From: Spirochaetaceae bacterium
GTDB lineage: Bacteria > Spirochaetota > Spirochaetia > Treponematales > Treponemataceae
Assembly: GCA_017614995.1 (NCBI GenBank)
Contig: JAGAAX010000062.1
Span: 1-64,000, forward strand
Length of the DNA stretch: 64,000 nt
Reading direction: 5' to 3'
Shown: positions 19,612 to 36,939 of the stretch, in pieces
How positions within the stretch are numbered: the stretch's first letter is position 1
Layout: each line of letters starts with the position of its first letter
Translations under genes and position numbers: made by a program
The notes under the pieces: generated by a model
What the model saw: the letters and a program-made list of their open reading frames with translations, nothing else
What the model was told of the DNA's origin: nothing
Databases searched by the model: none

Positions 19612-19773
19612 AAGGAGGAGTAGCCCATTATGATTTGATTAAGCCCCTGCACGCCGGCAGGTAAAACCAGGCGAACCTGAACCATTGTATACGAATACGA
19701 TGCTTCAGTAGAACGACATATCGAGCAAGGCAGTTTATATAGAGAATATATTCGAGTCCTTGAAGCCCGCTGA
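19612..19773 (+). pseudogene. probable gene remnant between NYN and HU-like genes
   Basis: A strong ribosome site AAGGAGGAG (19612-19620) is followed by ATGATTTGA (Met-Ile-stop, 19630-19638). In one frame VAHYDLIKPLHAGR can be read before a stop. In another frame, 19684-19773 gives 29 protein-like residues beginning IVYEYDASVERHIEQGSLY and ending in TGA. The pattern fits a short gene broken by frameshifts. It also contains small palindromes (GTATACGAATAC, GAATATATTC). No family recognised. Confidence 0.35.
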
Positions 19774-19797
19774 ATAATAGTTTATTCAGTACAAAAT
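19774..19797. other. hairpin upstream of the HU-like gene
   Basis: CTGAATAA (overlapping the end of the remnant) pairs perfectly with TTATTCAG across a 3- to 4-nt loop, about 20 bp before the ribosome site of the HU-like gene. There is no U-tract, so it is more likely a leader stem or processing site than a terminator. Confidence 0.4.
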
Positions 19798-19818
19798 GAA
19801 ATTTATTGAGGTGTTAAT

Positions 19819-20598: not shown

Positions 20599-20605
20599 AA
20601 ACAAG

Positions 20606-20665
20606 CCTGTTATGTATTGCTCATAACAGACACTTCCCGCAGCGCAACCCCTGCGGGATTTTTTT
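20606..20665 (+). terminator. double hairpin ending in an intrinsic terminator
   Basis: First hairpin CTGTTATG/CATAACAG at about 20607-20630, then CCCGCAG-cgcaaccc-CTGCGGG followed by a seven-T tract (20636-20665). Ends transcription of the HU-like gene. Confidence 0.85.
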
Positions 20666-20696
20666 GCATGCAGCAAGTAATATTCCATGCATACAG

Positions 20697-20850
20697 CTTA
20701 TTGCAAATTTGCATATTGCCGATTGCGTCCGTACTATAAGCAATATGCACAAACGCAACCGGCTTATTGCAAAGCTGCATATTGCCGATTGCGTCCGTAC
20801 TACAAGCAATATGCACAATTGCAACCGACTTATTGCTTGTACGCAAACGG
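20697..20850. repeat. 66-bp tandem repeat with internal GCATATTGC/GCAATATGC palindrome
   Basis: Two full units (20697-20762 and 20763-20828) and a partial third from 20829. Each unit contains GCATATTGC and its exact complement GCAATATGC 20 bp apart, plus CGATTGCGTCCGTACTA. It lies just upstream of the VapBC-like pair and fills the gene-free stretch 20666-20925. No coding frame is convincing. Possibly a binding array or expanding palindrome. Confidence 0.8.
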
Positions 20851-20925
20851 CAAGAATAGTCTTTATTTCCTGATAAAATGTATGTTATAATTAAAATATC
20901 AAAACTTAAAGATAGAGGTAGGCAA

Positions 20926-21159
20926 ATGCTTGTTTTACCAGCATACTACGACGGCAATTCCGTAAAAACTGTAGATGATTATAAATTCTCAAAAAATCAA
21001 AAGCTGATGATTACAGTTTTAGATGAAACCGAAGAGAAAGAATTAAATGGGCTAAAATCTTTACGCGGCAGTCTTTCAAAATATGCCAACCCGGATTTGA
21101 TTAAAAACGAAAAAACAGCATGGAGCAAGGCTATGGGAGAAAAGCATGGTTTACGCTGA
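20926..21159 (+). CDS. antitoxin of a VapBC-like pair
   Basis: A 77-residue protein beginning MLVLPAYYDGNSVKTVDD, the opening typical of small AbrB-like or DUF-type antitoxins partnered with PIN toxins (an N-terminal strand pair, then QKLMITVLDE). The C-terminal SLRGSLSKYANPDLI is the expected toxin-binding tail. Its last 14 bp overlap the start of the PIN toxin gene. The start at 20926 is supported by AGGTAGG 6 bp upstream; the longer frame from 20878 lacks this. It would neutralise the RNase and repress its own promoter. Confidence 0.8.
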   Translation: MLVLPAYYDGNSVKTVDDYKFSKNQKLMITVLDETEEKELNGLKSLRGSLSKYANPDLIKNEKTAWSKAMGEKHGLR

Positions 21160-21505
21160 TGCTAATTGCCTTTTACGTTTCATTCTGAATGACAATCAAG
21201 AAATGGCAGATTATACAGAAAATCTTTTGAACACGCAGGAAGTTTATTTATTGCATGAAGTTCTTTGTGAGATGGTGTATGTACTGAGGAGTGTTTATCA
21301 GACAAAAAGAAAAGATATAAACAACAAACTTTCTGCTTTGCTTGATTATTTAACAATAAATGATTCTGATATTATGAAAAAGGCATTGCAGTTCTATGAA
21401 GAGACAAGCCTTGATTTTGTAGATTGTATTCTCCTTTCATATTTCAAAACTAACAGTATTCAGATAGCAACTTTTGATAAGAAACTTAAGAATAAACTGA
21501 AATAA
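21146..21505 (+). CDS. PIN-domain RNase toxin (VapC-like)
   Basis: A 119-residue PIN-domain protein, normal for VapC. The acidic metal-binding residues are all in place: D5 (VYADANCLLRF), E42 (LCEMVYVL), D93 (LDFVDCIL) and D111 (ATFDKKL). It would be a Mg2+-dependent RNase acting on tRNA or mRNA, held in check by the antitoxin encoded immediately upstream with a 14-bp overlap. It converges with the caspase operon, whose last stop is 17 bp away. Confidence 0.85.
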   Translation: MVYADANCLLRFILNDNQEMADYTENLLNTQEVYLLHEVLCEMVYVLRSVYQTKRKDINNKLSALLDYLTINDSDIMKKALQFYEETSLDFVDCILLSYFKTNSIQIATFDKKLKNKLK

Positions 21506-21522
21506 TAACAAATTTCAAAGAG

Positions 21523-24500
21523 TTATGGTCTTAAAACAGGATTTTTATTCTCTACTGTTTGGATGATTTGAACTGATTCTAAAATCAAACCTGAAGCACC
21601 TTTGTTCACATGTTCTGTAGGCGAGTTATCAACTATAACCCAATCTTCGACAGGAGATTTTTTCCAAATACTCTGTCGATATCCATTTTCTTTACTTATT
21701 TGAGAAACTTCCTGACCTACATAATATATCAAACCGTCAAGTCCAATCTGCCCTTTTTTTAACAAATCTGCATTTCCATTAAGACCGTCAAGTACAGCAT
21801 GGGTAAAAAGTCCATGATTTAAAGAATCGTATTCAACTGAATACTGAATATCTGAAGATGATGAAATAACTGAAATACCTGTATTATCATTTGTGAACCT
21901 TTCAAAAACGAAATCATCTATAATAGAACCAGATTGACATGTATCGAGAAGTAGTAAGACATTTTTTGCCTGAATTTTAGAAAATATCTCGCCAAAGAAA
22001 TCTTTTGAAAATCCTTTGTTGCAAAGTTCTTCTACAGAATTACTTTGTAAATCGGCTGGAATAAAATAATAATCACCATCTTGCATTGTTCCATGACCAG
22101 AAAGGAAAAATACAAATACATCTTCCGGCTTAATTTTTGAAGACAAATTGTCAAATATAGATGAAATATTAGATTTTGTTACATTTTTATCTGTTATTAC
22201 TGAGACAGATATATCTTTATACATTGAGCCACTTTTGTTTTTAAAAAAATCTGCTATAGACTCAGCATCAGGAACAGCCCATTTTAACGAAGTGAAATCT
22301 TTTGATTTATACTCATTAATACCCACCGATAGCACATACAAATTTGGTTGATTTGTTTTTCCAAACCAAGTAATCTTAATTTCAGCAGGTTGGCTTTTTA
22401 TTTTCCCAGAAGCATCATAGGCAAATGCCTGAATTATATTTTCACCATTCTCTAAAACTACATCGCAAGAAATAGTAGACGTTTTTCCATATGAACACGT
22501 TTTTTCAATCAAGTATGAACGTCCATTAATTGAAATATGTATACTACCAATACCACCACCAGTATCTTTTACAATACAATTTAGTTTTACAGTTCTTTTT
22601 TTTGATACAGAATCTTTTTGCAGAAAACTTATATTAGGAGCCAGAATTTTTTCCAGAAACATCTTTTGTTTCAAAATAAGTGCTTGTTTATCATCAATAT
22701 TACTTTTTCCAGAAAGTCTTTCCATAACGATATCCGGTCTGTAAAGTACTTTATACATCTGCGACAATTCAATTACTTTCATTCTATCTACAATGTGAAT
22801 AAATTTATTTATACCAGTCTCGCTGCCCATAAAAAATCCGTCAGGTGTATAAGTTATCCAATCACCATCTTTATTTCCTATTGTGCAAGTTAAAAGTTCT
22901 CCTGTTTCAACAGAAAAGCATTTTAATATACCACCTGCATCTCTACAAATAAAATGCTTATCATCATTTACAAAATAATATTCCCCTGCTTCTCCTGTTT
23001 TGAATACTCTTAATAATTTTTCTGTTTCAAAGTCAAAAAGCTGAACCTCGTTTCTCCCATTTCCTAATGCAAAATATTTATTATTATTGGAAAAGACTCC
23101 TCTTCCACAGCCACTAAAATGCTTTATTTCATTCCAAGTCGCTGTATCATAAATCACATAATCCCCTGCTTTGGCATGATTCTGTCTTGCCATATAAGAG
23201 TCATCAGAAGAAACAGTAATAAAGTAATCTTTTGTTTTAATTAATATTCCTTTTCTAAAATCCATTATATATGATTTTTCATGATACGAATCAGAAATTA
23301 TAAAATTACCTTTTGGACTTATATATTCCGTAAAACACAATCCAGCATCTGCTTCATAGTAGCCAAGATATTCCTTTTTTTGCAAATTATAAATATGAAT
23401 ATCATTGCCATCCCTGATAGCAGTCATTTCTGTATTTGAATTCTCTATCAATACAGGGAGACCTGAAATTTCATTTAGTTGAAATTGTTGAATTTCATCA
23501 GGGGTTGAAAAAAGACGAACAACCAGTTCCTTTTTATTATCATTCGAAATTACATCAAAAATACCGTCCCTTGAAATTGAATATAAAGTAACTGCTTCCC
23601 AGTTATTAAGCATTTGTATTGGTTTCATTGTACTTACATCAAAGAAAGAACCGCCAGCCCCATCATACAGAATATTTAATTCAGGTATATACTGAATAGA
23701 ATTCAGTTCTGAGGCACCTTTAATTTTCCCAATTATACTTCCATCCTGAATTGAGCGTATTTCTATATCTCTATAACATCCAACAGTGTAGGTATCTTTA
23801 TTTTGAAAAGCAATTCTGTCAGACAGAAACGTCTGTTTCTTTTCAAATACAGTTGTTTTATTTGTCAGATAGTCCCAAATAGTAATGTTGTTATCGTCAT
23901 AATGCAGAAGAAAAAGAAAATTCTCATAGGGATAAAACTTTATATCATACAAAACTTTTTCACCACTTATCGAATTAATTATTTTTCCTGTTGAAATATC
24001 AACAACAGAAATGCGCTGTCGTCTATCTGATGTTTTATCTTCTAAAGTATAATAATATGCCAAATATTTCCCATCATAAGAAATATCAAGTTTGGAAGAA
24101 TGATTTTCAACTTGTATAGTTTTATCAATCTCTTTAGATTCAATATTCCAGAATACTACTGTATTTTTTACACCATCTTTGCCAGACTTACTTGTTATAG
24201 TTGCAATCGTCTTTGAATCTGGAGAAAATTTAAGCTCGTAAAATAGGCTGAAATCTCTTTTTCCATCAAGAATAAAAAGTCTTTCCTTCGTTTTGGAATC
24301 ATAAATACTTATTTTTTTACCATGCTGTTCCGCAACTGCCAGGTATTTATTATTCGGGGAACATGCAACATATAAGCTTCCATCTCTTCGATCAGAATCA
24401 TTTAAATCTATTTCCAATTCATACTCTTTACCTGTAGCAAATTCTAATACTACAGGTTTCATACCTTTATTGATATACAAACAGGCACTTCCATCCGGGT

Positions 24501-24807
24501 ATAAATCTGCATTATTTTCTTCAGACTTAAATTTTGTTATACTTTTTAATAATAAGCCTGTTGAAACTTCATATATACGAATATTCTCTTCATCTGCACA
24601 AAAAAGATATTTATTATCAATGCTATATTTTAAAATTGTTACACTTCCTGTAACTCCTTCTTGCACTACAAATTCTGGTACATTTTCTTTAGCATTATTT
24701 TTTAAGGAAAGTTCCATCATTTTTTTAGGAGCTATCGGGAAAAGTGCTGGATAAAAAAGATTCTCAACAAAAAAACATAGTACAAAAAGTATTATTATTT
24801 TTTTCAT
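21523..24807 (-). CDS. exported WD40 beta-propeller protein with C-terminal caspase (peptidase C14) domain
   Basis: A 1094-residue protein. A signal peptide or anchor occupies 1-25. Residues about 40-690 are WD40-like blades (for example LKYSIDNKYLFCADEENIRIYE). An Ig-like strand set at about 770-845 (GENIIQAFAYDASG) links to a caspase-type domain at about 850-1065. The catalytic dyad is intact: His905 in FLSGHGT and Cys957 in LLLDTCQSG, with VGINEYKSKDFTSLKWAVPD as the first strand. The ATG at 24807 has GGGAG 5 bp upstream; the frame extends to 24819. Last gene of the eight-gene operon, 17 bp behind the exported unknown protein. Predicted outside the cytoplasm, unusual for a caspase-like protease. 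Confidence 0.9.
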   Translation of the reverse strand: MKKIIILFVLCFFVENLFYPALFPIAPKKMMELSLKNNAKENVPEFVVQEGVTGSVTILKYSIDNKYLFCADEENIRIYEVSTGLLLKSITKFKSEENNADLYPDGSACLYINKGMKPVVLEFATGKEYELEIDLNDSDRRDGSLYVACSPNNKYLAVAEQHGKKISIYDSKTKERLFILDGKRDFSLFYELKFSPDSKTIATITSKSGKDGVKNTVVFWNIESKEIDKTIQVENHSSKLDISYDGKYLAYYYTLEDKTSDRRQRISVVDISTGKIINSISGEKVLYDIKFYPYENFLFLLHYDDNNITIWDYLTNKTTVFEKKQTFLSDRIAFQNKDTYTVGCYRDIEIRSIQDGSIIGKIKGASELNSIQYIPELNILYDGAGGSFFDVSTMKPIQMLNNWEAVTLYSISRDGIFDVISNDNKKELVVRLFSTPDEIQQFQLNEISGLPVLIENSNTEMTAIRDGNDIHIYNLQKKEYLGYYEADAGLCFTEYISPKGNFIISDSYHEKSYIMDFRKGILIKTKDYFITVSSDDSYMARQNHAKAGDYVIYDTATWNEIKHFSGCGRGVFSNNNKYFALGNGRNEVQLFDFETEKLLRVFKTGEAGEYYFVNDDKHFICRDAGGILKCFSVETGELLTCTIGNKDGDWITYTPDGFFMGSETGINKFIHIVDRMKVIELSQMYKVLYRPDIVMERLSGKSNIDDKQALILKQKMFLEKILAPNISFLQKDSVSKKRTVKLNCIVKDTGGGIGSIHISINGRSYLIEKTCSYGKTSTISCDVVLENGENIIQAFAYDASGKIKSQPAEIKITWFGKTNQPNLYVLSVGINEYKSKDFTSLKWAVPDAESIADFFKNKSGSMYKDISVSVITDKNVTKSNISSIFDNLSSKIKPEDVFVFFLSGHGTMQDGDYYFIPADLQSNSVEELCNKGFSKDFFGEIFSKIQAKNVLLLLDTCQSGSIIDDFVFERFTNDNTGISVISSSSDIQYSVEYDSLNHGLFTHAVLDGLNGNADLLKKGQIGLDGLIYYVGQEVSQISKENGYRQSIWKKSPVEDWVIVDNSPTEHVNKGASGLILESVQIIQTVENKNPVLRP

Positions 24808-24824
24808 AAAAACTCCCAATAAAA

Positions 24825-25490
24825 CTAATCTGTAAATAAACTAAAAGATACATTTGCCATTGTTCTGTTTCGTATTTGAATCATATATGGTTTTGAATTT
24901 TGAGGTATAAAACTTATAATATCATTTTCTTTTCCTTCTACCGTAATCTTTCCAGACGCATCGTAAATACTAATATCAAATTTCACTTCATTTAAAACTT
25001 TGACATAAATTTGAGCTTTTTTTCCTTCTATAAAAGGGATTTTATAAGAGTTACATCCATCATTTCCATATATAAAGCTGTCTATGCTTTTCGGTCCCTG
25101 TAATGCACCTTTTTTCTTAGAAAGCTTACCTTCTATTTTCTTTATCCATTTATCAAAAGTAGAATCTTTGCCTATTAAATATAGTGCATCAGAAAAAATC
25201 GAATTTGGCGACAACGAAAAATTGTCTTCCACTGTTGTTTTAGAAATAGTTCCTGCACGATGCTCTTCAATATCGAAATGTTTAATATTTACATCTGCAA
25301 GAATTTCGACAGCCTCTAATAAAGCTTGTGGAGATTCCATCTCATAACCATATTGTGCAAGATCATTTGCAAGTTTTATTTTTAGAAGAGAATTCGTACT
25401 ATAAGAATTTGTATTTTTTTCTTCGGAAAATACCGAAGCTATACAAATAAACATTAGAAAAAAAATACAGTGATAAAAATACTTGCTCAT
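24825..25490 (-). CDS. exported hypothetical protein
   Basis: A 221-residue protein with a signal peptide (1-22, ending IASVFSEE). The middle is helical; the last ~80 residues are beta-rich (VKFDISIYDASGKITVEG ... IQIRN), like bacterial pre-peptidase C-terminal or PPC-type domains that stabilise exported proteases. Given that it lies directly upstream of the WD40-caspase gene (17 bp), a chaperone or inhibitor role for that protease is possible but is only inference. No family recognised. Confidence 0.75.
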   Translation of the reverse strand: MSKYFYHCIFFLMFICIASVFSEEKNTNSYSTNSLLKIKLANDLAQYGYEMESPQALLEAVEILADVNIKHFDIEEHRAGTISKTTVEDNFSLSPNSIFSDALYLIGKDSTFDKWIKKIEGKLSKKKGALQGPKSIDSFIYGNDGCNSYKIPFIEGKKAQIYVKVLNEVKFDISIYDASGKITVEGKENDIISFIPQNSKPYMIQIRNRTMANVSFSLFTD

Positions 25491-25513
25491 ACAAATGTCT
25501 CCTTATATTTTTC

Positions 25514-27949
25514 TCAGTCATTATCCAAAGGTAATGTAAGTATAATATTATCATATTTATCAAGATAGAAAATGTCAAATTTTCCTTTTTCATTTTCTTT
25601 TGAATAAAATCTAACAATTTGCTTATTGAAAGCATAATTTCCATCTTTCGAATAATATGCACCTTCTGTAAGATATGTATCATCAAGGTTTTGACAACCT
25701 ACATAGTAAGCATAATTATCATTGGGAGCTGTGAATTCTCCATTTTTATCCTTAAATGATTCATATAAACGAAGACTGCTTGGAGAGAATAAAGAAATAT
25801 ATTCAGAAAAACCAAGATTTACACTATCTGACAGATTGCCCTGTTCAGAAAAAAATTGAGCAAAATATAACATACCATCATTAGTATAAGAAAAACAAGC
25901 TGTAGAAAAACCGTCTTTATCTGAATATTTTCCATCCTTATAATGAGATATTATCTTATTAGATCCAGAATATTTTATTTGAGTTGTTAATGTTTCGCCA
26001 TTGGCATTCTCATGGATTTCTGCAGATAACCTACCATATAAATCATATTCATTCATGATTTTTTCTTGGATAGGATAATCTGAAATTCTTTCTATCATAT
26101 TGCAATAAAAAGATTCTTCGTCTTGATATTCATAGTTTACAGAACAAAGCTTTTCTCCAAGCTGTGAAAAATATATTTTTTTTATTGGAGATTGGTAATT
26201 GGATAAATGAGTCATTTCTTCATGAACAGATGTTATTTTTTGGATTAATAAATCATTCTCATATTCTATTATTGTTTTTGGAACGCCCTTCTCTGTATTT
26301 TCAAAAAAATACTTTTTAACAATTTCTGATTTATTAATAAATGGGTTGTCATTTTTTTTACGAAACAATTGTTCTGTTAAATATTTTTTCTCATCATACT
26401 TGTTTTGAACAGAATATGCGGAACAACTAAGCGCATTAAGTGGTTTATTATCAGCATCAAAAAAAGATATAGAGCAAATTATTTCACCATTATTATCATC
26501 CCATAAAATTTTAGAAGCAGAATAATTACGCACAGGATTCAGAGAAGGACAATTTGTTTTGTCAACAAAACAAATTCCCGCTAAATTATGAGAGTTGTAA
26601 AAGTATTGTTTTTTATAAATATCAGATAATGACGGTATATATGAATAAAGATAAGTCTGTGACGCGATACGTCCCATATCATCATATTCATTTATAACAC
26701 CTTTTATACCATTTCTGTCTGAAACAGCTTGATTATTTTTATTATTGAAAAAAACTTTCTTCTCAAAACCATTCTCATCATAAAATGCTGTACAACGAAA
26801 AATTGCACCACTCTCATTGAATATTTTTTCTTCAGGTGTTTTAAAATCAGCTCTTTCTGCATTATCACTTTCTACAATATCTGAAAAAAATAAACAGGCA
26901 TCAGAAAGTATATTGTTTGAAAGACTCTTTTCAATTTCATCATCTGAATTATAATAAAACTCAATTCTTGAATTATGATTATTCTTTTCCCATACATACT
27001 TTAGTTTAACAATACATGATTTTTTTATATCAGATTCAAAATCATTATCCAAAAAAATACAACTAGCCTCATTTAATGCCCATTTTTCTTTATGCGCAGT
27101 GGGGAAAAAAGCATTTTTATATGAATAAAAGGCAATACTAGGAAAATTATGTTTTTCAGTCCAAAAAGCATAGGAAGAAGGAATTCCAGATGAATTAGCG
27201 TAAACAAGTTTTATAGGCCGCAAGAAACGGGTTGTTATTTCATAATGAAAAGGAATGGAAGAAATTTGATTTCTTCGTAGAGGATAAATTCCTTCTGGAA
27301 TTCCCCAACGGCTAATATAATCAGCATAATATCTAGTATGAGGTGTAATATACCAGATAACAAGACCGATAAAACAAGCTGTCAACGTACCTATTACACT
27401 CCAAACCGCTGTTATTCTATTTTTACGAACTTTTTCACGCTTGTAGATTTCATCAAATTTTACATCAAGCAGGTTTGCAAGAACACCGACAAAAGCCTTC
27501 CACTTGCCGTCACGAAGTACGCTTACACCGTTTATTGTATCTTTACCGCTGTCACCGAATAGGCTCGGAACATAGCAGTTGTTCAAACTCTCGCGTTCTA
27601 TTTCACCTTCAATAATATAAGGAATTATGTCATTGAAGGAATGTCCTAGTAAAAGGAAGTTTTTTACTTCAAGTTCAACATAAGGTGATTTTGCAGAATT
27701 TGGAGAGCAGATTACTATAAGTTTTTTGGAATCAGCAAGTTCCCGGCTCAAGGCATTTTCTACAGTATCACCAGGCACAATATCACCTTGGTCAAGAAAA
27801 ACATGGATTTTTTCAGGAATCTCCTCATACTGCTTTTGTAAAACAGCCGGAAGTTTATAGCGTTCAAGCTTTTTCCAGAGAGCCTTTGCAACTTTCTCAT
27901 CTTTTGAGCTGTAACTTATAAATGCAGAATAAGTGTAATCTTTAGCCAT
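25514..27949 (-). CDS. membrane TIR protein with large YD-like ectodomain
   Basis: An 811-residue protein. TIR domain at 5-170: YSAFISYSSKDEKV, BB-loop region HVFLDQGD, KKLIVICSPNSAKS, and SPYVELEV with Glu94 at the catalytic position. One membrane helix at about 180-200 with a strongly basic flank before it (KREKVRKNR), so the TIR is cytosolic and the ~600-residue remainder periplasmic. That part holds degenerate YD/RHS-like strands (NEYDDMGRIASQT, NEYDLYGRLSAEI). It is 3 bp behind the paralogous 1255-residue TIR protein and 23 bp ahead of the exported unknown gene. NADase activity would depend on Glu94; the ligand of the ectodomain is unknown. Confidence 0.9.
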   Translation of the reverse strand: MAKDYTYSAFISYSSKDEKVAKALWKKLERYKLPAVLQKQYEEIPEKIHVFLDQGDIVPGDTVENALSRELADSKKLIVICSPNSAKSPYVELEVKNFLLLGHSFNDIIPYIIEGEIERESLNNCYVPSLFGDSGKDTINGVSVLRDGKWKAFVGVLANLLDVKFDEIYKREKVRKNRITAVWSVIGTLTACFIGLVIWYITPHTRYYADYISRWGIPEGIYPLRRNQISSIPFHYEITTRFLRPIKLVYANSSGIPSSYAFWTEKHNFPSIAFYSYKNAFFPTAHKEKWALNEASCIFLDNDFESDIKKSCIVKLKYVWEKNNHNSRIEFYYNSDDEIEKSLSNNILSDACLFFSDIVESDNAERADFKTPEEKIFNESGAIFRCTAFYDENGFEKKVFFNNKNNQAVSDRNGIKGVINEYDDMGRIASQTYLYSYIPSLSDIYKKQYFYNSHNLAGICFVDKTNCPSLNPVRNYSASKILWDDNNGEIICSISFFDADNKPLNALSCSAYSVQNKYDEKKYLTEQLFRKKNDNPFINKSEIVKKYFFENTEKGVPKTIIEYENDLLIQKITSVHEEMTHLSNYQSPIKKIYFSQLGEKLCSVNYEYQDEESFYCNMIERISDYPIQEKIMNEYDLYGRLSAEIHENANGETLTTQIKYSGSNKIISHYKDGKYSDKDGFSTACFSYTNDGMLYFAQFFSEQGNLSDSVNLGFSEYISLFSPSSLRLYESFKDKNGEFTAPNDNYAYYVGCQNLDDTYLTEGAYYSKDGNYAFNKQIVRFYSKENEKGKFDIFYLDKYDNIILTLPLDND

Positions 27950-27952
27950 ATT

Positions 27953-30900
27953 TCATTTCCAAAAATTCGTGAAATAAGCATTATTCAAATCCAACTTCTT
28001 TAACTGTACAATAATAGGTTGATTCAGCAACTTTTCATATTTTGAATCTATGTAATCTATTCTCTCTTTTGAAAAATATACTTCATAACACCTATCATCT
28101 TCTATACGTAGATATAAAAAACCATAAGGCTGCTGATACTCATATAATGTATGAAAATTCTGAGATTCTACTATTTTAAAATTATTACCAAATTTTTCTT
28201 TTATTTCATCAAAAGTCATCTCAAATATAGGGATATCTATTTTTCCTTTGTAATCATTTCGAATATTTATTAATTGTAAATATGTATAAAAATATATGTC
28301 CAAAGTTATGTAAAAAACACCGCCACCATAATTCATAGTATCAAAAGAAGTTTCACCAGTAAAAAATGGCATTCGCTTTTTTATAACATCATTTTCTGCT
28401 ATTGAATTTAATCCATTAATCATTCCAAGTTTTAACGAAACATAACAATGATCCAATATGTCAGTCTTTTCCTCAACATCATTATACAATTCATCATGTA
28501 TCGGATTCCAATTTCCATCTTCATATAACAATTCATATTTATTTCCAGTATCATATCTGATTATTTCGCGGGTCGGATTCCAATTTCCACATTCATATAA
28601 CTTTTCTATTGAATAGCCATCATAAAACTCATTTTCTTTTACACGATTGCCATCTATATAAAGGGTTTCTCTTTTATATCCATCATTCTTAATCCAAATC
28701 TCCCGAACACGTTCTCCATTATCATAAAAAGTTTCCAGTTTGTTACCATCAGAAAAATTACTTATTGTATGAATGAGTTCCTCGTCTTCAAACAATTCCT
28801 CACTCTTATATCCATCATTAGAATTATAAATCTCTCGAACACGTTTCCCATCTTCATAAAACAGCTCTTTTGTGTACCCATCGGCAAAACAACTTATTGT
28901 ATGTACAATATTTCCATTCTCATAGAATATATCTCGCTCTTGACCATCTTGCAAAAGTAAATGAAGTACATAAGTATCTTTTTTTGAATCATATTTCCAT
29001 TCTAATTGATTACCTAATTCAGCATTTTTATCATAAAAAGTTTTTTTAATAAGATTTTTATGGGTATCATATTCATAATAAACAATTGCATAATAATGGA
29101 ATTCCCAAATATCCGCTAATTCAATTATTTCACTAAGCTGAGCATGGCGTAGAGTTTCATCAAAAAATTCTTCTTTGATTATTTGCCCATACTCATTGTA
29201 TTCATAACAGACCTGTGCATAGTTATCTCCACATTTTGTCAGCCTATTATTTTTATCAAAATAGCTTATTTTTGTTACATTATTATTATCATCATATTCT
29301 CTTTTTATTATGCAGAATGGATCTAATGGCTCTTTTTTTGAATTATACCGTTTTTGATAGATTTCATTACCTTTGTCATCATATTCATATTCTATATATG
29401 CATATCCATACGAAGTATCACAAAGCTTTTGTTTTTCAGAATCACTATAATAAGCAGAAGATATACAATTACCAAATTTATCATATTTATGTTCAGAAAC
29501 AGCAAAGCCATACCAAATAATTACAGGTTTGTTATCTATATCAAAATATGATACACCTATTTTATTACCATAAGCGTCAAAATCAATTTTTTTAGAAAAA
29601 TGCCCAAATTTGGTAAGAGCAGGCTTTCTATTTCTATCAAAATTCTTTTCCTCAACAATGTTTCCTAACTTATCATATTCATATGTAGTAATTGCTATAT
29701 TTTCCCAACTTTCTTTTAACGTTTTGAAATCAGTGTCAAAATAACGGACTTCTTTAACCTCGTTTTCATCGTTATAAAGAAACTCAGCTTTTGCGAATTC
29801 TCCTGACCCAAGAACCGGTAATCCATTTTGATCAAAAAAACATTCAAATTCTATAAAACCTTTGTCATTATAGGATATTGTTGCCTTGTGCCATCCTGAG
29901 TCACCATAATCGACAGGTTTTTCATCGCTATCATAACAGGAACTTTCTATGCAATTGCCATATAAATCAAATAGCCTTTTAGAAATAGCAAATCCATCTT
30001 CATTCAAACATAAAACATTGTTTTCATCATAATAATATCTTGTAATAATATTTACATTCTCATTTTTATCATAACTAACTTTTTCGATAGCATATTTATC
30101 ACTATTACAGATATACCCACCATTTTTATCATGAAAAGAAGTAGATATACGGCGCCCCAAATCGTCATATTCATATTCTATATAAGCAATTCCTTCATAA
30201 TTGGGATATATAGCACCAGAGTCATCACAAAATGTTTCTCTAATTAAATTTCCATTTTGATACTCATAAACTGTTACTATAGCACCATTCCAATCTCGTA
30301 TCGGTTTCCCATCTGAATTTACATACATTAATTTACAGATATTAAAATTATCATCATATTCATAAAAGTATCCAGCCATTCCATCTTTTAGTGGCTGTCT
30401 ATAAAATAGAACCTCATTATTCGTAATGCTACTATCATTTCTGTATCCTAAATACCAAGTTTGTACAGGTCTTCCCAGTTCATCCAAAACAAATTCCACA
30501 CCTGCTGTACCATCTTTATCCTTTGCAGGATGCTCAGCTCCATGAGATCCAAAAAACAGTTCTCTAACAACATAACCCGCTTCATTGCGTTCAAATTTTT
30601 TAGATTTTATATTTGCAGTTCCACCCTCAGCATTTACTGCTTCAAGCCATGATAAATCTGCATTAAAGCTGGTAGGACTGCCAGTAGCACTTTTAAAATC
30701 TATGACAGATCCCTGCTGCTCATAGACATTTCTTACTATAATAGTATTATTTGCATTTTTAAGTATACGCGCCTGTAACAACCCTGTTGATCCGTTATAT
30801 TCAAATTCTGACAATAATTCTTTAGAATTCTTGACACTATTTACAGGTATGATTCTTTTTAATTTTCCATCTATATAATCAAAACGATAATACTTTTCTC

Positions 30901-31720
30901 TACCTTTTAGCTCTTCCTCTAACAATTTACCTAAACCGGTAAATTCTATATCTGTTCCATTTTTCTTTTGTACAGCCCTTTCAACATAATCCACAAAATA
31001 TTCATGATAAACATGAAATTTCTTAAAATAAATAGTCAGACCAGCACTAAGCATTACTACAAAACATGCAGCAGCGGTAAACAATCTTGTATAGGCTTTT
31101 CTTTTTTGAGCTTTTTTGTTCCAATCCCATAGATCATCTATAGTAAGTCCTAGCATTTTTGCAACAATATGGACTATTGCTTTTTCTTCTAAATCATCTT
31201 CGTCTGGAATACCTAACTTACGCTTTATCGATTTTCCAAAAGTAATTTTTTTCTTAGGATTTTTTCGTATATCTATTCCTAAAAGTTCATCACCGCCAGG
31301 CAATGATAAAAGAGCCGGACAAAAACATTCTTCTTCGGAATTAGAGGCATGAGGTTCACCTCCTACAATAACAGGAATTATGAATTCTGCTCTGCCAATA
31401 TCAACAAAATGCTGAACTTCGTTATTTACCCAGTGTTTGTTTTCATCGTTAGGTTTGGCAGAATTTGGAGAACACAAAACTATAAGAAACTTTGAGTGTT
31501 CCAGTTCCGAATGGAGCGTTCCCTGCAACATTCCCGTTGTAAGGTTTGTAGCATCGCGAAAAATCGGGCGGACATTATCAGGCAAGAGAGGATTTGCCTT
31601 GCGGATTACACTAGGCAACTTGTATTCGGTAAGCTTTTTTTGGATACGTTTTGCATATTCTTCATCTTCATGACTGTAGCTGATGAAAGCGTAATACTTA
31701 AAATTGACGTTCGATTCCAT
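27953..31720 (-). CDS. giant membrane TIR protein with YD- and MORN-like repeat ectodomain
   Basis: A 1255-residue protein, the largest in the window. TIR domain at 8-200: YYAFISYSHEDEEYAKRIQ, RPIFRDATN, KFLIVLCSPNSAKP and W97-V-N-N-E101, with Glu101 at the NADase catalytic position. One membrane helix at 211-231 preceded by KKAQKRKAYTR. From about 290 to 950 the ectodomain repeats units of the type YEYDxxGNxxxxxYYDxxxKP every ~30-36 residues, similar to YD/RHS repeats; from about 985 to 1110 shorter MORN-like units follow (YEDGKRVREIYNSNDGY). Same operon as the other conflict genes, 28 bp after the TrkA-N-like/RyR gene. The layout resembles a receptor: repeats outside, TIR inside. Confidence 0.9.
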   Translation of the reverse strand: MESNVNFKYYAFISYSHEDEEYAKRIQKKLTEYKLPSVIRKANPLLPDNVRPIFRDATNLTTGMLQGTLHSELEHSKFLIVLCSPNSAKPNDENKHWVNNEVQHFVDIGRAEFIIPVIVGGEPHASNSEEECFCPALLSLPGGDELLGIDIRKNPKKKITFGKSIKRKLGIPDEDDLEEKAIVHIVAKMLGLTIDDLWDWNKKAQKRKAYTRLFTAAACFVVMLSAGLTIYFKKFHVYHEYFVDYVERAVQKKNGTDIEFTGLGKLLEEELKGREKYYRFDYIDGKLKRIIPVNSVKNSKELLSEFEYNGSTGLLQARILKNANNTIIVRNVYEQQGSVIDFKSATGSPTSFNADLSWLEAVNAEGGTANIKSKKFERNEAGYVVRELFFGSHGAEHPAKDKDGTAGVEFVLDELGRPVQTWYLGYRNDSSITNNEVLFYRQPLKDGMAGYFYEYDDNFNICKLMYVNSDGKPIRDWNGAIVTVYEYQNGNLIRETFCDDSGAIYPNYEGIAYIEYEYDDLGRRISTSFHDKNGGYICNSDKYAIEKVSYDKNENVNIITRYYYDENNVLCLNEDGFAISKRLFDLYGNCIESSCYDSDEKPVDYGDSGWHKATISYNDKGFIEFECFFDQNGLPVLGSGEFAKAEFLYNDENEVKEVRYFDTDFKTLKESWENIAITTYEYDKLGNIVEEKNFDRNRKPALTKFGHFSKKIDFDAYGNKIGVSYFDIDNKPVIIWYGFAVSEHKYDKFGNCISSAYYSDSEKQKLCDTSYGYAYIEYEYDDKGNEIYQKRYNSKKEPLDPFCIIKREYDDNNNVTKISYFDKNNRLTKCGDNYAQVCYEYNEYGQIIKEEFFDETLRHAQLSEIIELADIWEFHYYAIVYYEYDTHKNLIKKTFYDKNAELGNQLEWKYDSKKDTYVLHLLLQDGQERDIFYENGNIVHTISCFADGYTKELFYEDGKRVREIYNSNDGYKSEELFEDEELIHTISNFSDGNKLETFYDNGERVREIWIKNDGYKRETLYIDGNRVKENEFYDGYSIEKLYECGNWNPTREIIRYDTGNKYELLYEDGNWNPIHDELYNDVEEKTDILDHCYVSLKLGMINGLNSIAENDVIKKRMPFFTGETSFDTMNYGGGVFYITLDIYFYTYLQLINIRNDYKGKIDIPIFEMTFDEIKEKFGNNFKIVESQNFHTLYEYQQPYGFLYLRIEDDRCYEVYFSKERIDYIDSKYEKLLNQPIIVQLKKLDLNNAYFTNFWK

Positions 31721-31748: not shown

Positions 31749-33854
31749 TTACTCTCTCTCTACCAGCAAAAACTTTGTGCCTGCAATGTTGCCGGGGTTG
31801 TTCTTTTGGCATCCGATTATGGACGGAATCTCGCGGATAAACACTTCATCATAGATTTTAAAATTGCCGTATTCTTTTTCTAAAGCGCCTAAGTCTTTCC
31901 ATGTACACAGACAGCCATGCATACGAGCCAGAACATATTTGTGTTTTTTCTTTTTACCCAATAATTCTCTGTAAATAAAAGTTTCTTCCAGAGTAGGACT
32001 TTTCCAACCTTCAGTAAAATGAAAAGCACACCATCTTTCATGTTCAACTTGCTGCAGTTTTTCCATTTTTTCTTTGTCATTGATATTCTTTGCAAATATT
32101 GCGAGAGCATTTTCTGTCTCTTTTATCTGTTCTTGAGAAGGTTCACCGTCACAAGGCTTTAACTCAAGCCCCATAAGAAACAGCTTATTTTTGATATGCA
32201 CAGCAGCAGCTCTGTTAGAAGATTTATCAAATTCGCTTGAATTGCAGCCAAAAACAGCACTCTCTTTTGTTTCATAAACAGACGAATTAACTTCTTTGCT
32301 ATATGCGGCATGACAGTTTATTGCTATTTTTTCTATAGGCGAATCTACTATAAGGTTATACGAATATATTTCGCTGTCATAGCCAAAAGAGTACAGGCCG
32401 TATGAAAACCCATCCGCAGCAGAAAGAGTGTCTACCCTGTCTGCCATTTTTGAATCTGCTATTCTTACCGCAATAAAAGGCTTAAAATTAAAGTCACCAG
32501 AATTGCGGATATAGAACACGCGGAGATAAATCGCAAGTTTTAAGTTTTCTTCATCATTGCCAGTATCAATTACTATGTAGTTTGGTTTTGGCAATTTATT
32601 TAGCAAAAGTTCACCCAGCTCTGACGACTGCAAATCTACATTATAAAAGTTAAGGTTATAGTTTTGTGCAAATAAATCCTTGCAATCACGTTCCATCAAA
32701 GTTTTGTATGCCTCTGCCCTGCTATCCACATAGGCAAGCGAAACTTTGTATGAATCATCAAGAACAGAAGCCCAAATAGCATTTCTAAAGAACTCTTTTG
32801 CATAAAATCCGCCACCAAATACTGCAACTGAAAGCAATTTGTTTTCTTCATCAATAATGCCTTTTTCGCAAAATGATTTTTCAAAAAGAAGATTGTAAAC
32901 GCTCGATTTTACAGAATCTACCAAAATAACGTTTATTTTCTTCTGACTGGTTTTAGAGATTAATTCAGAACCAAAAAGAGTTGACTTCATAAACAGAAAG
33001 ACTTTTACATTAGGAAGAAAGTCTTTATTAAAAGAATCATAAAATTCTATAAGACGTTTGGTACTGTCAAGATTTTTGTTATCGTCCTCTGAAATCTCAA
33101 AATAATACTTTTTTTTGTTTCCAAGCGAATAACTCAAAACCAAATCACGTTCATTTTCTGAAAGCAGAACAAAATGGTTTCGGTCTGCCCTTTCTGAAAA
33201 TTCACCTGAAACATTGCCGCAGTTGCAAAAAACTATAAGTGCCTTGCGTTTTTCATTTGCATAAATATCTTCTGCAAGAAGCAGTGCTTTTTCGTTTAAT
33301 TCAGAAAAATAATACACATCTTTTATACGCCGTTTAAAATGATAAGAAAGGAAATACCACAGTGCCTTTATATAAGAAACAAGGAAACCGCCAAATATAA
33401 GCGGAGACACAAATGAAAGAAGCAGCATGAATATGCCAAAAGGCATACCAAGCCACCAAGGGAAAATAAAGGAAGAAGCAAAAAGAGAGGGATACTTTAA
33501 GACAAACGCACCCATTTTAGGCGCATAAATCAAGCCATAAATAATGGAAAAAGGCAGCTTCTTCTCTGATTTTATTTCAAATTCTGTACTATGAATAAGA
33601 ATGAAAGGGGCTTTATCCCATTTGGAAGGATCGTCAGATTTTACAACAGGAGTTTCGCCTTCTGCTGTATAAGCATTACCATAATAAAACAGACATGAAA
33701 GCATTATAAAATCAGTAAACACAATACCCAACAGGAGTATTTTCAAGGCAGATTTAAGATTTCTGTGCCGTCTGAAAGCTATAAAAATAGTAAGAGCAAA
33801 TACAACTATGGCTGCGCCAAAAATAAACCAAGGTAAAACTAAGATTTCTTTCAT
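31749..33854 (-). CDS. membrane protein with TrkA-N-like Rossmann region and C-terminal RyR domain
   Basis: A 701-residue protein. It begins with two membrane helices (5-27 and 37-58) and has two further hydrophobic stretches at about 115-170. Residues 190-560 look like one or two Rossmann-type nucleotide-binding units (KALIVFCNCGNVSG; LLSVAVFGGGFYAKEFF), as in TrkA-N proteins. The last ~100 residues match a bacterial RyR domain: VEHERWCAFHFTEGWK followed by HKYVLARMHGCLCTWKDLG. Bacterial RyR domains have been linked by comparative genomics to nucleotide-based conflict systems. Together with TIR NADases in the same operon, sensing of an NAD-derived nucleotide is an attractive inference. 28 bp ahead of the large TIR gene. 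Confidence 0.8.
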   Translation of the reverse strand: MKEILVLPWFIFGAAIVVFALTIFIAFRRHRNLKSALKILLLGIVFTDFIMLSCLFYYGNAYTAEGETPVVKSDDPSKWDKAPFILIHSTEFEIKSEKKLPFSIIYGLIYAPKMGAFVLKYPSLFASSFIFPWWLGMPFGIFMLLLSFVSPLIFGGFLVSYIKALWYFLSYHFKRRIKDVYYFSELNEKALLLAEDIYANEKRKALIVFCNCGNVSGEFSERADRNHFVLLSENERDLVLSYSLGNKKKYYFEISEDDNKNLDSTKRLIEFYDSFNKDFLPNVKVFLFMKSTLFGSELISKTSQKKINVILVDSVKSSVYNLLFEKSFCEKGIIDEENKLLSVAVFGGGFYAKEFFRNAIWASVLDDSYKVSLAYVDSRAEAYKTLMERDCKDLFAQNYNLNFYNVDLQSSELGELLLNKLPKPNYIVIDTGNDEENLKLAIYLRVFYIRNSGDFNFKPFIAVRIADSKMADRVDTLSAADGFSYGLYSFGYDSEIYSYNLIVDSPIEKIAINCHAAYSKEVNSSVYETKESAVFGCNSSEFDKSSNRAAAVHIKNKLFLMGLELKPCDGEPSQEQIKETENALAIFAKNINDKEKMEKLQQVEHERWCAFHFTEGWKSPTLEETFIYRELLGKKKKHKYVLARMHGCLCTWKDLGALEKEYGNFKIYDEVFIREIPSIIGCQKNNPGNIAGTKFLLVERE

Positions 33855-33867: not shown

Positions 33868-35379
33868 TTATTTTCCTATTTTTATTGTAAACGGTCCCTG
33901 TTCCATATCAGCTTTTATTGATAAAGAATATTCTTTGGATTCGGTGTCATCATCATAAAGATATATCAGTTTAAGCTTTGAATTTTTAGGTACAGTAAGA
34001 ACGGCTTTTCCATTATCAGTTATCTTATAGACATCATAAACAAATTCATTGCTGCACCATAAATCGTAAAAACCTACTATATCGTCAGTCAAAAACTGGC
34101 GCAATTCTTTGCGCTTTGTCACACTCCGCAATTTATATGCGAGGTCTCTGTCTATTGATATTTTCTCCAGAACTTCATCAATATTATATTTCCACAAGAG
34201 CTCAATAATATCCCACATGCGTTTAAATAGACTTTCTTTTTCAATGTAGTCCTCTAAGTAACCTTTTGTTATATCATCTCTAAAAACAACAAGCAGACCG
34301 TTTCTGACAGACTTATTTGTCTTTTCTTTATGAACCAGTTGAACAGAAACAAAGACTTCATCCTTGTACTTTTCTGTACTTGGGTCTGATTTTATCCAAT
34401 CAAATGAATAGGCAGGCAGGTTAACTTCAGGGTAAATATATTTTGTATATGCAAATGCTTCATTCCAATAGGTATTCGGCTGCGCAATAGCAACCGGTCT
34501 TGAGGGATTGGACTGGTTATCCCATGTATTTATACCGATAAGTTTGTCTTTATAAAAAAGCCCGCCGCCACTGTTGCCGTTTGAAATCCAGCTTGTATGA
34601 AGAATATTTGAAGTTGACTCATCTTCGAAGCCCAATAACTCGCCGGAAGTTTTTGAAGAACGGTTCGGATCTCCGACGCCGGGAAAACCGATAGACCTAA
34701 CCTTTTTCTCAAGATATTCATATTCGAATGGATTTGAGAGTCTTGAATAAGGAAGATTGAGTTTGTCATCACATTTCTTGCCGATAACAGGAACTTGTTT
34801 TTCATTCATTGAAGCTTCATTTACAATTTTCAGAACCGCCCTGTCACGTATATAATCATCGTAATCAGAATCCCACATTATTTTCTCAGCAATATATGCG
34901 AGTCTCTGTTTTTCATCATTCTTCTTAAGACGCTCTACATCACAAAGCCCGACAAACATATGATCAGGATACTGATTGACAAGAACATATTTCACAGTTT
35001 TTCCTGATTTTCCTATGAGCGGTTTTCCGGCAGGATTTTTCTTAATTTTAATTTCAGGCTCTAAATATGCACCGAAAACATGAGCATTTGTTATGATAAG
35101 TCCCTGGGCTGTAACGATTACACCTGTACCGACAGAAACCAAATCATCTTCTTCTAAAAGAACCTCTGCCCCGCCAAAATCAGGTTTGCCATTAACGGTT
35201 TTAAACTTGTAATCATCAGCCAGCCCTTCAACAGTATAAACTTTTAAAAGGCTTGAGAGCTTTACAACAGAAGCTACAGTTTCCTCTGAAATCCAATCTG
35301 AAGATTTGGTTTCGCCAGAAACTACGGCTATATTCAGGATAAGGAACAGGAGAATTATTAAAACAGGCTTATTTTTCAT
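33868..35379 (-). CDS. exported trypsin-like serine protease
   Basis: A 503-residue protein with a signal peptide (1-22) and a chymotrypsin/HtrA-type protease domain at about 80-300. The catalytic triad is intact: His100 in ITNAHV, Asp179 in RDRAVLKI and Ser270 in NGNSGGG. The ~200-residue C-terminal part has no PDZ domain and ends in a beta-rich segment (SLSIKADMEQGPFTIKIG). Its start overlaps the end of the upstream membrane gene by 11 bp, and the RyR-containing gene follows 13 bp later. Predicted in the periplasm or outside. A second protease, the caspase-like protein, is made from the same transcript. Confidence 0.9.
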   Translation of the reverse strand: MKNKPVLIILLFLILNIAVVSGETKSSDWISEETVASVVKLSSLLKVYTVEGLADDYKFKTVNGKPDFGGAEVLLEEDDLVSVGTGVIVTAQGLIITNAHVFGAYLEPEIKIKKNPAGKPLIGKSGKTVKYVLVNQYPDHMFVGLCDVERLKKNDEKQRLAYIAEKIMWDSDYDDYIRDRAVLKIVNEASMNEKQVPVIGKKCDDKLNLPYSRLSNPFEYEYLEKKVRSIGFPGVGDPNRSSKTSGELLGFEDESTSNILHTSWISNGNSGGGLFYKDKLIGINTWDNQSNPSRPVAIAQPNTYWNEAFAYTKYIYPEVNLPAYSFDWIKSDPSTEKYKDEVFVSVQLVHKEKTNKSVRNGLLVVFRDDITKGYLEDYIEKESLFKRMWDIIELLWKYNIDEVLEKISIDRDLAYKLRSVTKRKELRQFLTDDIVGFYDLWCSNEFVYDVYKITDNGKAVLTVPKNSKLKLIYLYDDDTESKEYSLSIKADMEQGPFTIKIGK

Positions 35380-36679
35380 TTTCTTTCCTCATTGTTGTTA
35401 CAAGTTTTCGTATAAGTTTCTCGTTTCTCAGCTCAGAGCGCGTTTCGTTAGCCGCAGTTTTGCTTTCCATCTGAATTTTCACAACATCAGAATTTTTGAT
35501 AAGAACATATGAATTATCTTTTAGTTTATGAACTTCCCAGCATTTAAGAATATATGTATTATCTCCGGTTGGCAGCAGTAGTCCCTGTGAGTCAACAAAA
35601 GAAATATAAACACACATCTCTTTATCTGAAAATTCCTGATACGAATCATCATCTGCATCTACCTTTTCAAAAAGAGAAGCAATAGATTTTTTGTTTTTTA
35701 TCTCGTTGAAATCTGCCGGCAGCTCAAAAGACCAGTTTCCGTCATTTGAAAAAAATCTTACAGTCTTATTCAACTGACACTGAAAAACAAAACAGTAAGT
35801 TATAATTGCTATAATTAGTACAATTCCATAAATTTTGTAGAAAACAGGATTTTTCTGTGCCAATTCATGTTCTTTTGAGATGTTTTTGGCAATAAAGACA
35901 GCGTTAATTATATAAACAATGATAGTAAGTACAAACGGAACTGCAAAACGCAATATGTCAAATTGAGCAAGCCTTATATTTTTGTCTATAACCGAATCCA
36001 AAAAGAAATCAAGCAAAAAAATAACAAGCATAACAATAATGGAAACAATCATATAAAAAAGCTTTTTTACATTTCTCAATTTATAAACCAAAAAACCAGA
36101 CAAAGCACATACAGATGAACAAATCAACAGCCTCACTATCAAAATTTGAATCAGATACCTTACATTCAATGATTCAAAAGCAAGAACTTCATTTAAAAAA
36201 ATTGCACAGCCGATTCCTATTCCTGTAAAACCTCCATAAATCATGCTGTCAATGAATTCATCAAAAGAAGCAAGCCTGAAAACATATAAATCAAAAACTA
36301 TATATATAGAAAGAATTGGCAAAAGTACAAATTTTAAAAGCCAAAAATGCGGCACTTCCGGCTGAACCGCAGAAGCAAATATTCTGTCAAAAATTGAAAG
36401 CATAAAAAAATGAATAAACAATGCAGAACAGAAAGTGTGTAAAATTGATTTACATGGTTCTTTCTTAATCTTATCCATATTCCAATAAGTAAAAATCCAG
36501 AACGAAGCCATAAAAATCATTATCATGAAAAGAATAAAACAGCTTGAAAAATTAGAATTTTCAAGTTCAATTGTACAGATTTTTGTAAAACTCAGTACAT
36601 AAAAAACTACAGCAAGAATAAGTGATGCAATTGCCGCACTTATGACCTTTTTTGAAACATTATCAACAGAATCTTCCAT
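35369..36679 (-). CDS. polytopic membrane protein, possibly PrsW-like
   Basis: A 436-residue protein with about eight membrane helices in its first 320 residues and a soluble C-terminal domain of ~115 residues (NGDWSFEL-type opening NDGNWSFELPADFNEI). One segment, FDEFIDSMIYGGFTGIGIG, resembles the conserved IDGxVYGxxxGLGF region of PrsW-type intramembrane proteases, but the paired glutamates of that family are not clear, so protease activity is not claimed. It sits 2 bp behind the small RyR gene and overlaps the trypsin gene by 11 bp. Confidence 0.7.
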   Translation of the reverse strand: MEDSVDNVSKKVISAAIASLILAVVFYVLSFTKICTIELENSNFSSCFILFMIMIFMASFWIFTYWNMDKIKKEPCKSILHTFCSALFIHFFMLSIFDRIFASAVQPEVPHFWLLKFVLLPILSIYIVFDLYVFRLASFDEFIDSMIYGGFTGIGIGCAIFLNEVLAFESLNVRYLIQILIVRLLICSSVCALSGFLVYKLRNVKKLFYMIVSIIVMLVIFLLDFFLDSVIDKNIRLAQFDILRFAVPFVLTIIVYIINAVFIAKNISKEHELAQKNPVFYKIYGIVLIIAIITYCFVFQCQLNKTVRFFSNDGNWSFELPADFNEIKNKKSIASLFEKVDADDDSYQEFSDKEMCVYISFVDSQGLLLPTGDNTYILKCWEVHKLKDNSYVLIKNSDVVKIQMESKTAANETRSELRNEKLIRKLVTTMRKENEK

Positions 36680-36681: not shown

Positions 36682-36939
36682 TTATGTCGTCCTTGAAATT
36701 GAATAACCAAGCGCAGTTAATGCATTTATAACAGTCCTGGCAGTTTCTTTGTCGTATTCCTTTTCACTCTCTGGAAGTTCTGCATAAGGAACAATACAGG
36801 GAGTTGTCTTCTTTGTATCATTGCGCTCTTTGCCGTATGACCAACCGTCATTTATCCGCTTTTTCATCCAAGCAATATGAACTTGTTCAGCCAATTTTTC
36901 CAATAAATTTTCAAAGTCTGGGAAATCTTTTGAATTCAT
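36682..36939 (-). CDS. stand-alone RyR-domain protein
   Basis: An 85-residue protein that is essentially one RyR domain: AEQVHIAWMKKRINDGWSYG, then TPCIVPYAELPESEKEYD and a closing helix. This matches the bacterial single-RyR proteins very well. RyR repeats of animal ryanodine receptors share this fold; bacterial copies often sit beside nucleotide-signalling and conflict genes. First gene of the operon that ends with the caspase protein at 21523; AAGGTG lies 11 bp upstream of the ATG. Cytosolic; ligand unknown. Confidence 0.88.
   Translation of the reverse strand: MNSKDFPDFENLLEKLAEQVHIAWMKKRINDGWSYGKERNDTKKTTPCIVPYAELPESEKEYDKETARTVINALTALGYSISRTT

What the first reader, a model, noticed from the sequence alone, without database searches (positions are those of the whole stretch)
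25514..31720. Two Toll-receptor-like proteins: cytosolic TIR, one membrane helix, large repeat ectodomain
Both TIR proteins have a single membrane helix with basic residues on its N-terminal side, which predicts TIR inside and the 600- to 1000-residue remainder outside the cytoplasm. The larger one shows YD/RHS-like units about every 30-36 residues followed by MORN-like units. Most characterised bacterial TIR defence proteins are soluble. A repeat ectodomain coupled to a cytosolic TIR is functionally reminiscent of Toll receptors, with the order reversed along the chain.
Basis: partly seen in the sequence, partly recalled or inferred. Interest (0 to 1): 0.75.

Follow-up and report, generated by a model that had tools for sequence, protein, structure and literature searches.

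The report
Membrane-spanning bacterial TIR receptors with repeat ectodomains
A rumen-type Treponema carries, in one operon, two immune-type TIR proteins that appear to span the inner membrane (TIR inside, a fast-evolving Rhs/MORN-type repeat domain outside), next to a membrane protein with TrkA and ryanodine-receptor-like domains, which suggests a bacterial sense-outside, signal-inside system that could be tested directly.

Summary
Both ORFs carry an N-terminal TIR domain, one strong membrane helix preceded by basic residues, and a remainder of about 609 or 1,023 residues. In the larger protein the remainder is a ~32-residue YD/Rhs-like hairpin array followed by a 22-residue MORN-like array; the AlphaFold model resembles Rhs/teneurin cores and MORN/OspA sheets. 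The receptor reading is strengthened. Against two Treponema homologues the cytosolic half is 86-89% identical, then identity falls at the membrane to 22-43%, although synonymous sites are saturated. The upstream companion gene encodes a membrane protein with TrkA_N/RyR-like domains; it sits beside a TIR gene in seven of eight genomes with a full-length copy and was swapped together with the TIR in a sister species whose flanks are 89% identical. Trypsin and caspase-fold proteases in the operon have signal peptides. Two corrections: the topology is teneurin-like (type II), not Toll-like, with no LRRs; and the repeats are not always outside, because one close relative has lost the membrane helix and other repeat proteins have none. 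Best explanation: an envelope-sensing TIR conflict or defence system signalling through an NAD-derived messenger. The function is inferred.

The parts
27953..31720 (-). TIR-A, 1255 aa: TIR - membrane helix - YD/Rhs-like array - MORN-like array - C-terminal ~170 aa
31355..31687 (-). TIR domain of TIR-A (residues 12-122), with the WxxxE motif (WVNNE) of catalytic bacterial TIRs
   Evidence: motif read from the sequence
31025..31093 (-). Membrane helix of TIR-A (residues 210-232)
28916..30379 (-). YD/Rhs-like beta-hairpin array of TIR-A (about residues 448-935, period ~32)
28484..28993 (-). MORN-like array of TIR-A (about residues 910-1079, period 22)
25514..27949 (-). TIR-B, 811 aa: TIR - membrane helix - juxtamembrane module - divergent YD-like remainder
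27581..27922 (-). TIR domain of TIR-B (YVELE at the WxxxE position)
27344..27412 (-). Membrane helix of TIR-B (residues 180-202)
27020..27334 (-). Conserved juxtamembrane module of TIR-B (RYYADYISRWGIPEGI...), shared with spirochaete, Prevotellaceae and Oscillospiraceae TIR proteins
31749..33854 (-). Companion, 701 aa: 2-4 membrane helices, TrkA_N-like Rossmann region(s), C-terminal RyR-like domain
33868..35379 (-). Trypsin/HtrA-like serine protease with signal peptide; GNSGGG serine motif present
35369..36679 (-). 436-aa polytopic membrane protein (8 predicted helices), unknown
36682..36939 (-). Stand-alone RyR domain, 85 aa, the only PF02026 match in the genome
24825..25490 (-). 221-aa protein with signal peptide; 48% identical homologue at the same place in G177
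21523..24819 (-). WD40-caspase (Peptidase_C14) with N-terminal hydrophobic signal; replaced by a signal-bearing TPR-CHAT protease in G177

Best explanation
The two genes encode type II single-pass membrane TIR proteins: the TIR domain in the cytoplasm, the Rhs/MORN-type repeat domain in the periplasm. They are the sensor/transducer of an eight-gene envelope-associated conflict (probably anti-phage or anti-competitor) operon. Proposed action: the repeat domain, perhaps after cleavage by or contact with the secreted trypsin/caspase-fold proteases, detects something in the envelope; this clusters the TIR domains, which cleave NAD+ and either deplete it or make a cyclic-ADP-ribose-type messenger; the neighbouring membrane protein with TrkA_N-like and RyR-like domains, and the stand-alone RyR protein, read that messenger and act at the membrane. 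Shown by computation: gene order, TIR family, a single helix with inside-positive charge, repeat fold class, TrkA_N/RyR relationship of the companion, acceleration outside the membrane, co-replacement. Inferred: NADase activity, messenger, ligand, role of the proteases, defence role.
For: Topology. TIR family and catalytic motif. Repeat fold: best Foldseek hits are Rhs cores, then Tc BC components, teneurins and OspA (E down to 2e-22, but TM-scores only ~0.2); VIA-align Z 8-9 to Rhs cores for TIR-A residues ~464-944 and Z ~10 to MORN1/OspA for ~880-1080. Ectodomain acceleration: TIR-B v two homologues of a buffalo-rumen Treponema: residues 1-180 86-89% identical (dN 0.10-0.11, pS 0.69-0.72), residues 204-811 29-40% (dN 0.58-0.85, pS 0.50-0.60); the homologues' own pair behaves alike, while the companion (80% in its soluble part) and trypsin (65%) from the same genomes do not. 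Companion: full-length in 8 of the 16 genomes searched, once per genome, seven times beside a TIR gene and once (G217) beside a YD-repeat protein cut off by the contig end; the family profile hits RyR structures (E 1e-4); the Brachyspira-like counterpart has TrkA_N above cut-off. Co-replacement: G001 is 89% identical in DNA from 38040 to 33853, which is the companion's start; the companion is then only 32% identical in protein and the TIR only 53% at best, except for 87 bp at the TIR start that stay 93% identical. Spirochaete loci with the helix carry the secreted trypsin (window, G001, G268, G177); G188, G019 and G039, with companion but TIRs lacking the helix, do not.
Against: No experiment. 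The topology comes from hydrophobicity and charge alone. Helix-less relatives show that the repeats can be cytoplasmic. dN/dS outside does not exceed 1 and those alignments are at 27-40% identity, so relaxed constraint is not excluded. G177 and the window have about equally conserved TIR and ectodomain, so acceleration is not universal. The companion's AlphaFold model is poor (pLDDT 48). A caspase with a signal peptide cannot meet a cytosolic messenger directly. The A2 profile was built from TIR-linked loci, so its linkage tally is partly ascertained. PADLOC finds no complete known system.
Confidence: 0.5

Rival explanations
1. The repeat domain is a structural or assembly scaffold rather than a ligand receptor. 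It holds TIR proteins and partners together at the membrane and works equally well in either compartment; triggering comes from inside the cell.
For: Repeats occur without a membrane helix in a TIR homologue (L049), in zinc-ribbon proteins (L050, L052) and in L146. Open hairpin ribbons of MORN type are often scaffolds in eukaryotes (established knowledge).
Against: The sharp change of evolutionary rate sits at the membrane helix. Loss of the helix in G188 goes with absence of the secreted trypsin. A scaffold would be expected to be more conserved than this relative to the catalytic part.
Confidence: 0.22
2. It is an envelope-stress or housekeeping signalling system: the HtrA-like protease and caspase-fold protease sense misfolded envelope proteins and the TIR proteins relay this inside, with no role in biological conflict.
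For: The trypsin-like protein matches HtrA/DegS-type models in its N-terminal half, and the operon is chromosomal and in a conserved position in sister species.
Against: The companion and TIR genes are swapped between sister species whose flanks are 89% identical, and content around them differs between genomes, which is typical of conflict loci. Occurrence is patchy: the TIR-B ectodomain is in 2 of 245 family genomes, the juxtamembrane module in 6 of 344 phylum genomes.
Confidence: 0.18
3. The repeat part is an Rhs-type polymorphic toxin carrier tethered by a TIR-bearing anchor, used in contact-dependent killing.
For: The fold resembles Rhs cores, and Rhs/YD proteins of bacteria are mostly toxin carriers (PMC3482391, PMC13018210).
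Against: The end of the array is MORN-like followed by a short C-terminal part; no toxin domain, self-cleaving protease signature or immunity gene was recognised by Pfam, NCBIfam or PADLOC. The N-terminus is a cytosolic TIR rather than a secretion signal.
Confidence: 0.06

Closest known systems
Toll / Toll-like receptors
   Same: Cytosolic TIR, one membrane helix, large repeat ectodomain (predicted here).
   Different: No leucine-rich repeats, reversed chain order (TIR at the N-terminus), TIR of the bacterial TIR_2/ThsB type with a catalytic-type WxxxE motif, no adaptor or transcriptional pathway known.
Teneurins and bacterial teneurin-like/Rhs YD-repeat proteins
   Same: Teneurins are single-pass proteins with a cytosolic N-terminus and a YD-repeat extracellular fold (PMC6428715, PMC5851990); Rhs cores and teneurins are among the top structural matches.
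   Different: A TIR domain inside, an open hairpin ribbon ending in MORN-like units in the model, no recognised toxin tip, no closed shell with confident geometry (TM-scores ~0.2).
Thoeris systems (types I-IV)
   Same: ThsB-like TIR above the Pfam cut-off; TIR plus neighbouring candidate effectors; a caspase-like protease is the effector of type IV (stated in PMC12847820, citing Rousset 2025).
   Different: TIR is membrane-spanning with an ectodomain; no SIR2-SLOG or macro-TM effector; the caspase here bears a signal peptide; the usual neighbour is a TrkA_N/RyR-like membrane protein.
NTP-dependent and peptidase-rich conflict systems (Kaur 2020, PMC7159879; DGR-diversified sensors, PMC10907252)
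   Same: Same toolkit of TIR, caspase/CHAT and trypsin domains, partly extracytoplasmic sensors.
   Different: No MoxR/vWA/STAND NTPase core here; a find-in-text returned no RyR in PMC7159879; the sensor is an Rhs/MORN array rather than a lectin.

Membership tests
TIR domain proteins (PF13676) | Score above the Pfam gathering cut-off | tested here: met
   53.9 and 39.3 bits v 28
Catalytic bacterial TIR NADases | WxxxE-type catalytic glutamate | tested here: met
   WVNNE / YVELE, aligned with YVEYE and WCNEE in homologues
Catalytic bacterial TIR NADases | NAD+ cleavage activity | not testable with these tools
   needs an enzyme assay
Toll/TLR | Cytosolic TIR and a single membrane helix | tested here: met
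   prediction only
Toll/TLR | Leucine-rich-repeat ectodomain at the N-terminus, TIR at the C-terminus | tested here: not met
   no LRR match; TIR is N-terminal
Thoeris | ThsB-type TIR | tested here: met
   PF08937 24.3 and 26.3 bits v 21.2
Thoeris | Cognate cytosolic ThsA-type effector (SIR2-SLOG, macro-TM or cytosolic caspase) | tested here: not met
   no such neighbour in Pfam/PADLOC/NCBIfam scans; the caspase has an N-terminal signal segment
Rhs/YD-repeat proteins | RHS_repeat/YD sequence model above cut-off | tested here: not met
   14.3 bits v 22 and 13.2 v 15.8 for TIR-A; the helix-less homologue in L049 reaches 22.4 v 22
Rhs/YD-repeat proteins | Rhs/teneurin hairpin-spiral fold | tested here: inconclusive
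   top Foldseek hits, VIA Z 8-9 over ~300 residues, but TM-score ~0.2 and mean pLDDT 62
MORN-repeat proteins | MORN sequence model above cut-off | tested here: not met
   no MORN hit at E<1; fold Z ~10 to MORN1 structures for residues ~880-1080
TrkA_N-RyR membrane proteins (companion) | RyR-like domain and TrkA_N-like Rossmann domain | tested here: inconclusive
   RyR structures hit at E 1e-4 and weaker; TrkA_N weak in Treponema (best 0.03), above cut-off in the Brachyspira-like counterpart (1.6e-7)

The most novel reading that the evidence does not exclude
A previously undescribed class of bacterial transmembrane TIR immune receptors whose Rhs/MORN ectodomains diversify between strains, and whose TIR-made NAD-derived messenger is read by a membrane protein with a ryanodine-receptor-like domain: a bacterial counterpart of both Toll-type outside sensing and cADPR/ryanodine-receptor signalling.
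Probability: 0.22. Interest if true: 0.9.

Novelty: new variant of a known kind. Interest (0 to 1): 0.62.

Why it matters
Most characterised bacterial TIR immune proteins sense threats from inside the cell. A TIR protein with an outside domain that changes about five to eight times faster in protein sequence than its inside half would give bacteria an outside sensor analogous in layout to animal receptors. The recurrent partnership with a TrkA_N/RyR-like membrane protein makes a concrete, testable pair: does a TIR product bind and gate an RyR-type domain? How cADPR acts on ryanodine receptors has long been debated in animals as well (own knowledge).

Tried and rejected
Recent gene conversion as the cause of the step at the membrane: rejected, synonymous sites are saturated in the conserved half too. 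Domain swap with a different history of ectodomain and TIR half: trees and AU tests on five sequences give no significant conflict, so I do not claim it for TIR-B. Phage or plasmid carriage: no tblastn match for the TIR-B ectodomain in the plasmid collection or for TIR-A in the phage collection. Fold of the companion: AlphaFold model too poor to search. My recollection that the juxtamembrane motif is very widespread: not borne out, 1 of 345 genomes in the Prevotellaceae locus's phylum and 2 of 348 in the Oscillospiraceae locus's phylum, query genomes included. A key comparative paper on nucleotide-centric conflict systems (NAR 2015, recalled from memory) was not held, so prior mention of TIR-RyR pairs cannot be excluded. 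Literature searches for TIR with YD/RHS/MORN repeats or RyR found no matching system. Helix prediction is my reimplementation of a published scale from memory, not DeepTMHMM or TMHMM.
Full report
What was checked. Both TIRs pass Pfam cut-offs. Each has one strong helix after the TIR with basic residues before it; the charge bias holds in 19 of 20 relatives from Treponema, a Brachyspira-like family, Prevotellaceae and Oscillospiraceae. The predictor is a reimplementation from memory, so the helix positions should be rerun with a standard tool. The organism is inferred from its relatives: two of them, named in the public records, are rumen/omasum Treponema.

Repeats. In TIR-A the motif count, spacing and autocorrelation support a ~32-residue YD-like array followed by a 22-residue array. 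AlphaFold on the remainder (mean pLDDT 62; about 75-90 in most of the YD repeats) gives a long run of two-stranded hairpins. Foldseek's first hits are Rhs cores, then Tc BC components, teneurins and OspA, and VIA-align puts Rhs cores on model residues ~225-705 and MORN1/OspA on ~640-840 (add 239 for protein numbering). Global TM-scores are low, so this is a fold class, not a close match.

A buffalo-rumen Treponema (L133, G268) has two TIR-B homologues at the same operon position. Residues 1-180 are 86-89% identical to TIR-B; from residue ~204 identity falls to 41-43% and then 22-38%. DNA similarity stops at 27286-27287, about codon 221, in both. Synonymous divergence is saturated in the conserved half (pS 0.69-0.72), so the conservation reflects constraint, and nonsynonymous divergence is about 5-8 times greater outside (dN 0.58-0.85 v 0.10-0.11). 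dN/dS outside stays below 1 and the alignments are poor, so this is fast evolution, not proof of positive selection. Against the more distant G177 the two halves are about equally conserved.

Companion and cassette exchange. The 701-aa protein has 2-4 helices and a soluble part whose family profile hits RyR structures (E 1e-4) and weakly TrkA_N. The counterpart beside the Brachyspira-like TIR genes has TrkA_N above cut-off and a faint match to the Treponema family. A full-length copy was found once in each of eight genomes: seven times next to a TIR gene and once (G217) next to a YD-repeat protein whose N-terminus is cut off by the contig end. The profile was built from such loci, so this shows absence of unlinked full-length copies rather than an unbiased linkage rate. 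In the sister species G001 (L026) DNA is 89% identical up to 33853, i.e. to the start of the companion, then unrelated at DNA level except for 87 bp at the TIR start (93%) and short weak matches; the companion is 32% and the TIR half at most 53% identical in protein while flanking dS is only 0.25. Companion and TIR were therefore exchanged together, which argues that they work together.

Which side are the repeats on? Four Treponema-family loci with the helix also have the signal-bearing trypsin (window, G001, G268, G177), and the window and G177 share a signal-bearing 221-aa protein and a caspase-fold protease (WD40-C14 in one, TPR-CHAT in the other). Spirochaete loci with the companion but TIRs lacking the helix (G188, G019, G039) lack the trypsin homologue. 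In G188 the nearest relative of TIR-A keeps TIR, juxtamembrane module and repeats but has a clean deletion of the helix. Helix-less repeat proteins also occur in L050, L052 and L146, while zinc-ribbon proteins with the helix exist beside them. So the outside location is well supported for these two proteins, but the repeat is a portable module, not inherently an outside domain.

Mechanism. Shown by computation: architecture, family memberships, rate step, co-exchange. Established knowledge: bacterial TIR domains cleave NAD+ and some make cADPR isomers or His-ADPR that activate effectors, including a caspase-like one in type IV Thoeris (PMC12847820). Inferred: outside trigger, TIR clustering, messenger read by the RyR-like proteins, membrane-level effect. 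The signal-bearing caspase cannot simply be the type IV effector; it may act on the ectodomains instead.

Verdict. Ordinary in toolkit, unusual in arrangement. 14 of 77 TIR_2 loci examined have a helix right after the TIR, 10 of them with this juxtamembrane module or its divergent form (the sample is enriched by earlier module searches). The juxtamembrane module is patchy: 6 of 344 genomes of the phylum. I file it as a new variant of TIR-based conflict systems, teneurin-like in topology, and rate the Toll analogy as a layout resemblance only.

Noticed in passing
window 15236-16432 and 16434-18260 (-): Two more TIR-helix proteins (398 and 608 aa). The 608-aa one has a weak PDZ-like C-terminus (PF17820, E 0.095); the 398-aa one lacks the WxxxE glutamate (YIQKLK), suggesting an inactive TIR partner.
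   Followed up: partly
window 10200-11405 and 11792-12256 (-): TPR protein and YbjN-like protein, both with signal-type N-termini; the TPR protein resembles the TPR part of the TPR-CHAT protease of G177, and YbjN is joined to MORN-like repeats in L053.
   Followed up: partly
L133 versus window 8800-25500: In G268 the homologues of window genes 7519-8736 and 6588-7499 lie directly after the TIR genes, so the ~17 kb between (221-aa, caspase, NYN, further TIRs and others) is a variable stretch.
   Followed up: partly
L132 (G270, Prevotellaceae), 1928-12273: Five TIR-domain genes within ~11 kb, one of them TIR-helix-YD with three further C-terminal helices.
   Followed up: no
L127 4704-11066: A 2,120-aa TIR-helix protein of a Brachyspira-like genome with a second strong helix at 1788-1810.
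   Followed up: no
L126, L128, L129: In the Brachyspira-like family a 214-aa gene (sigma-70 region 2-like in L129) sits between the TrkA_N companion and the TIR-helix-YD gene.
   Followed up: partly
L050 and L052: Families of zinc-ribbon proteins with YD-like repeats, some with a helix between and some without, in other genomes of the Treponema family.
   Followed up: partly
window 52388-55273 (-): UvrD-type helicase in a strong AT-rich dip (29% GC against ~42% around), possibly acquired.
   Followed up: no
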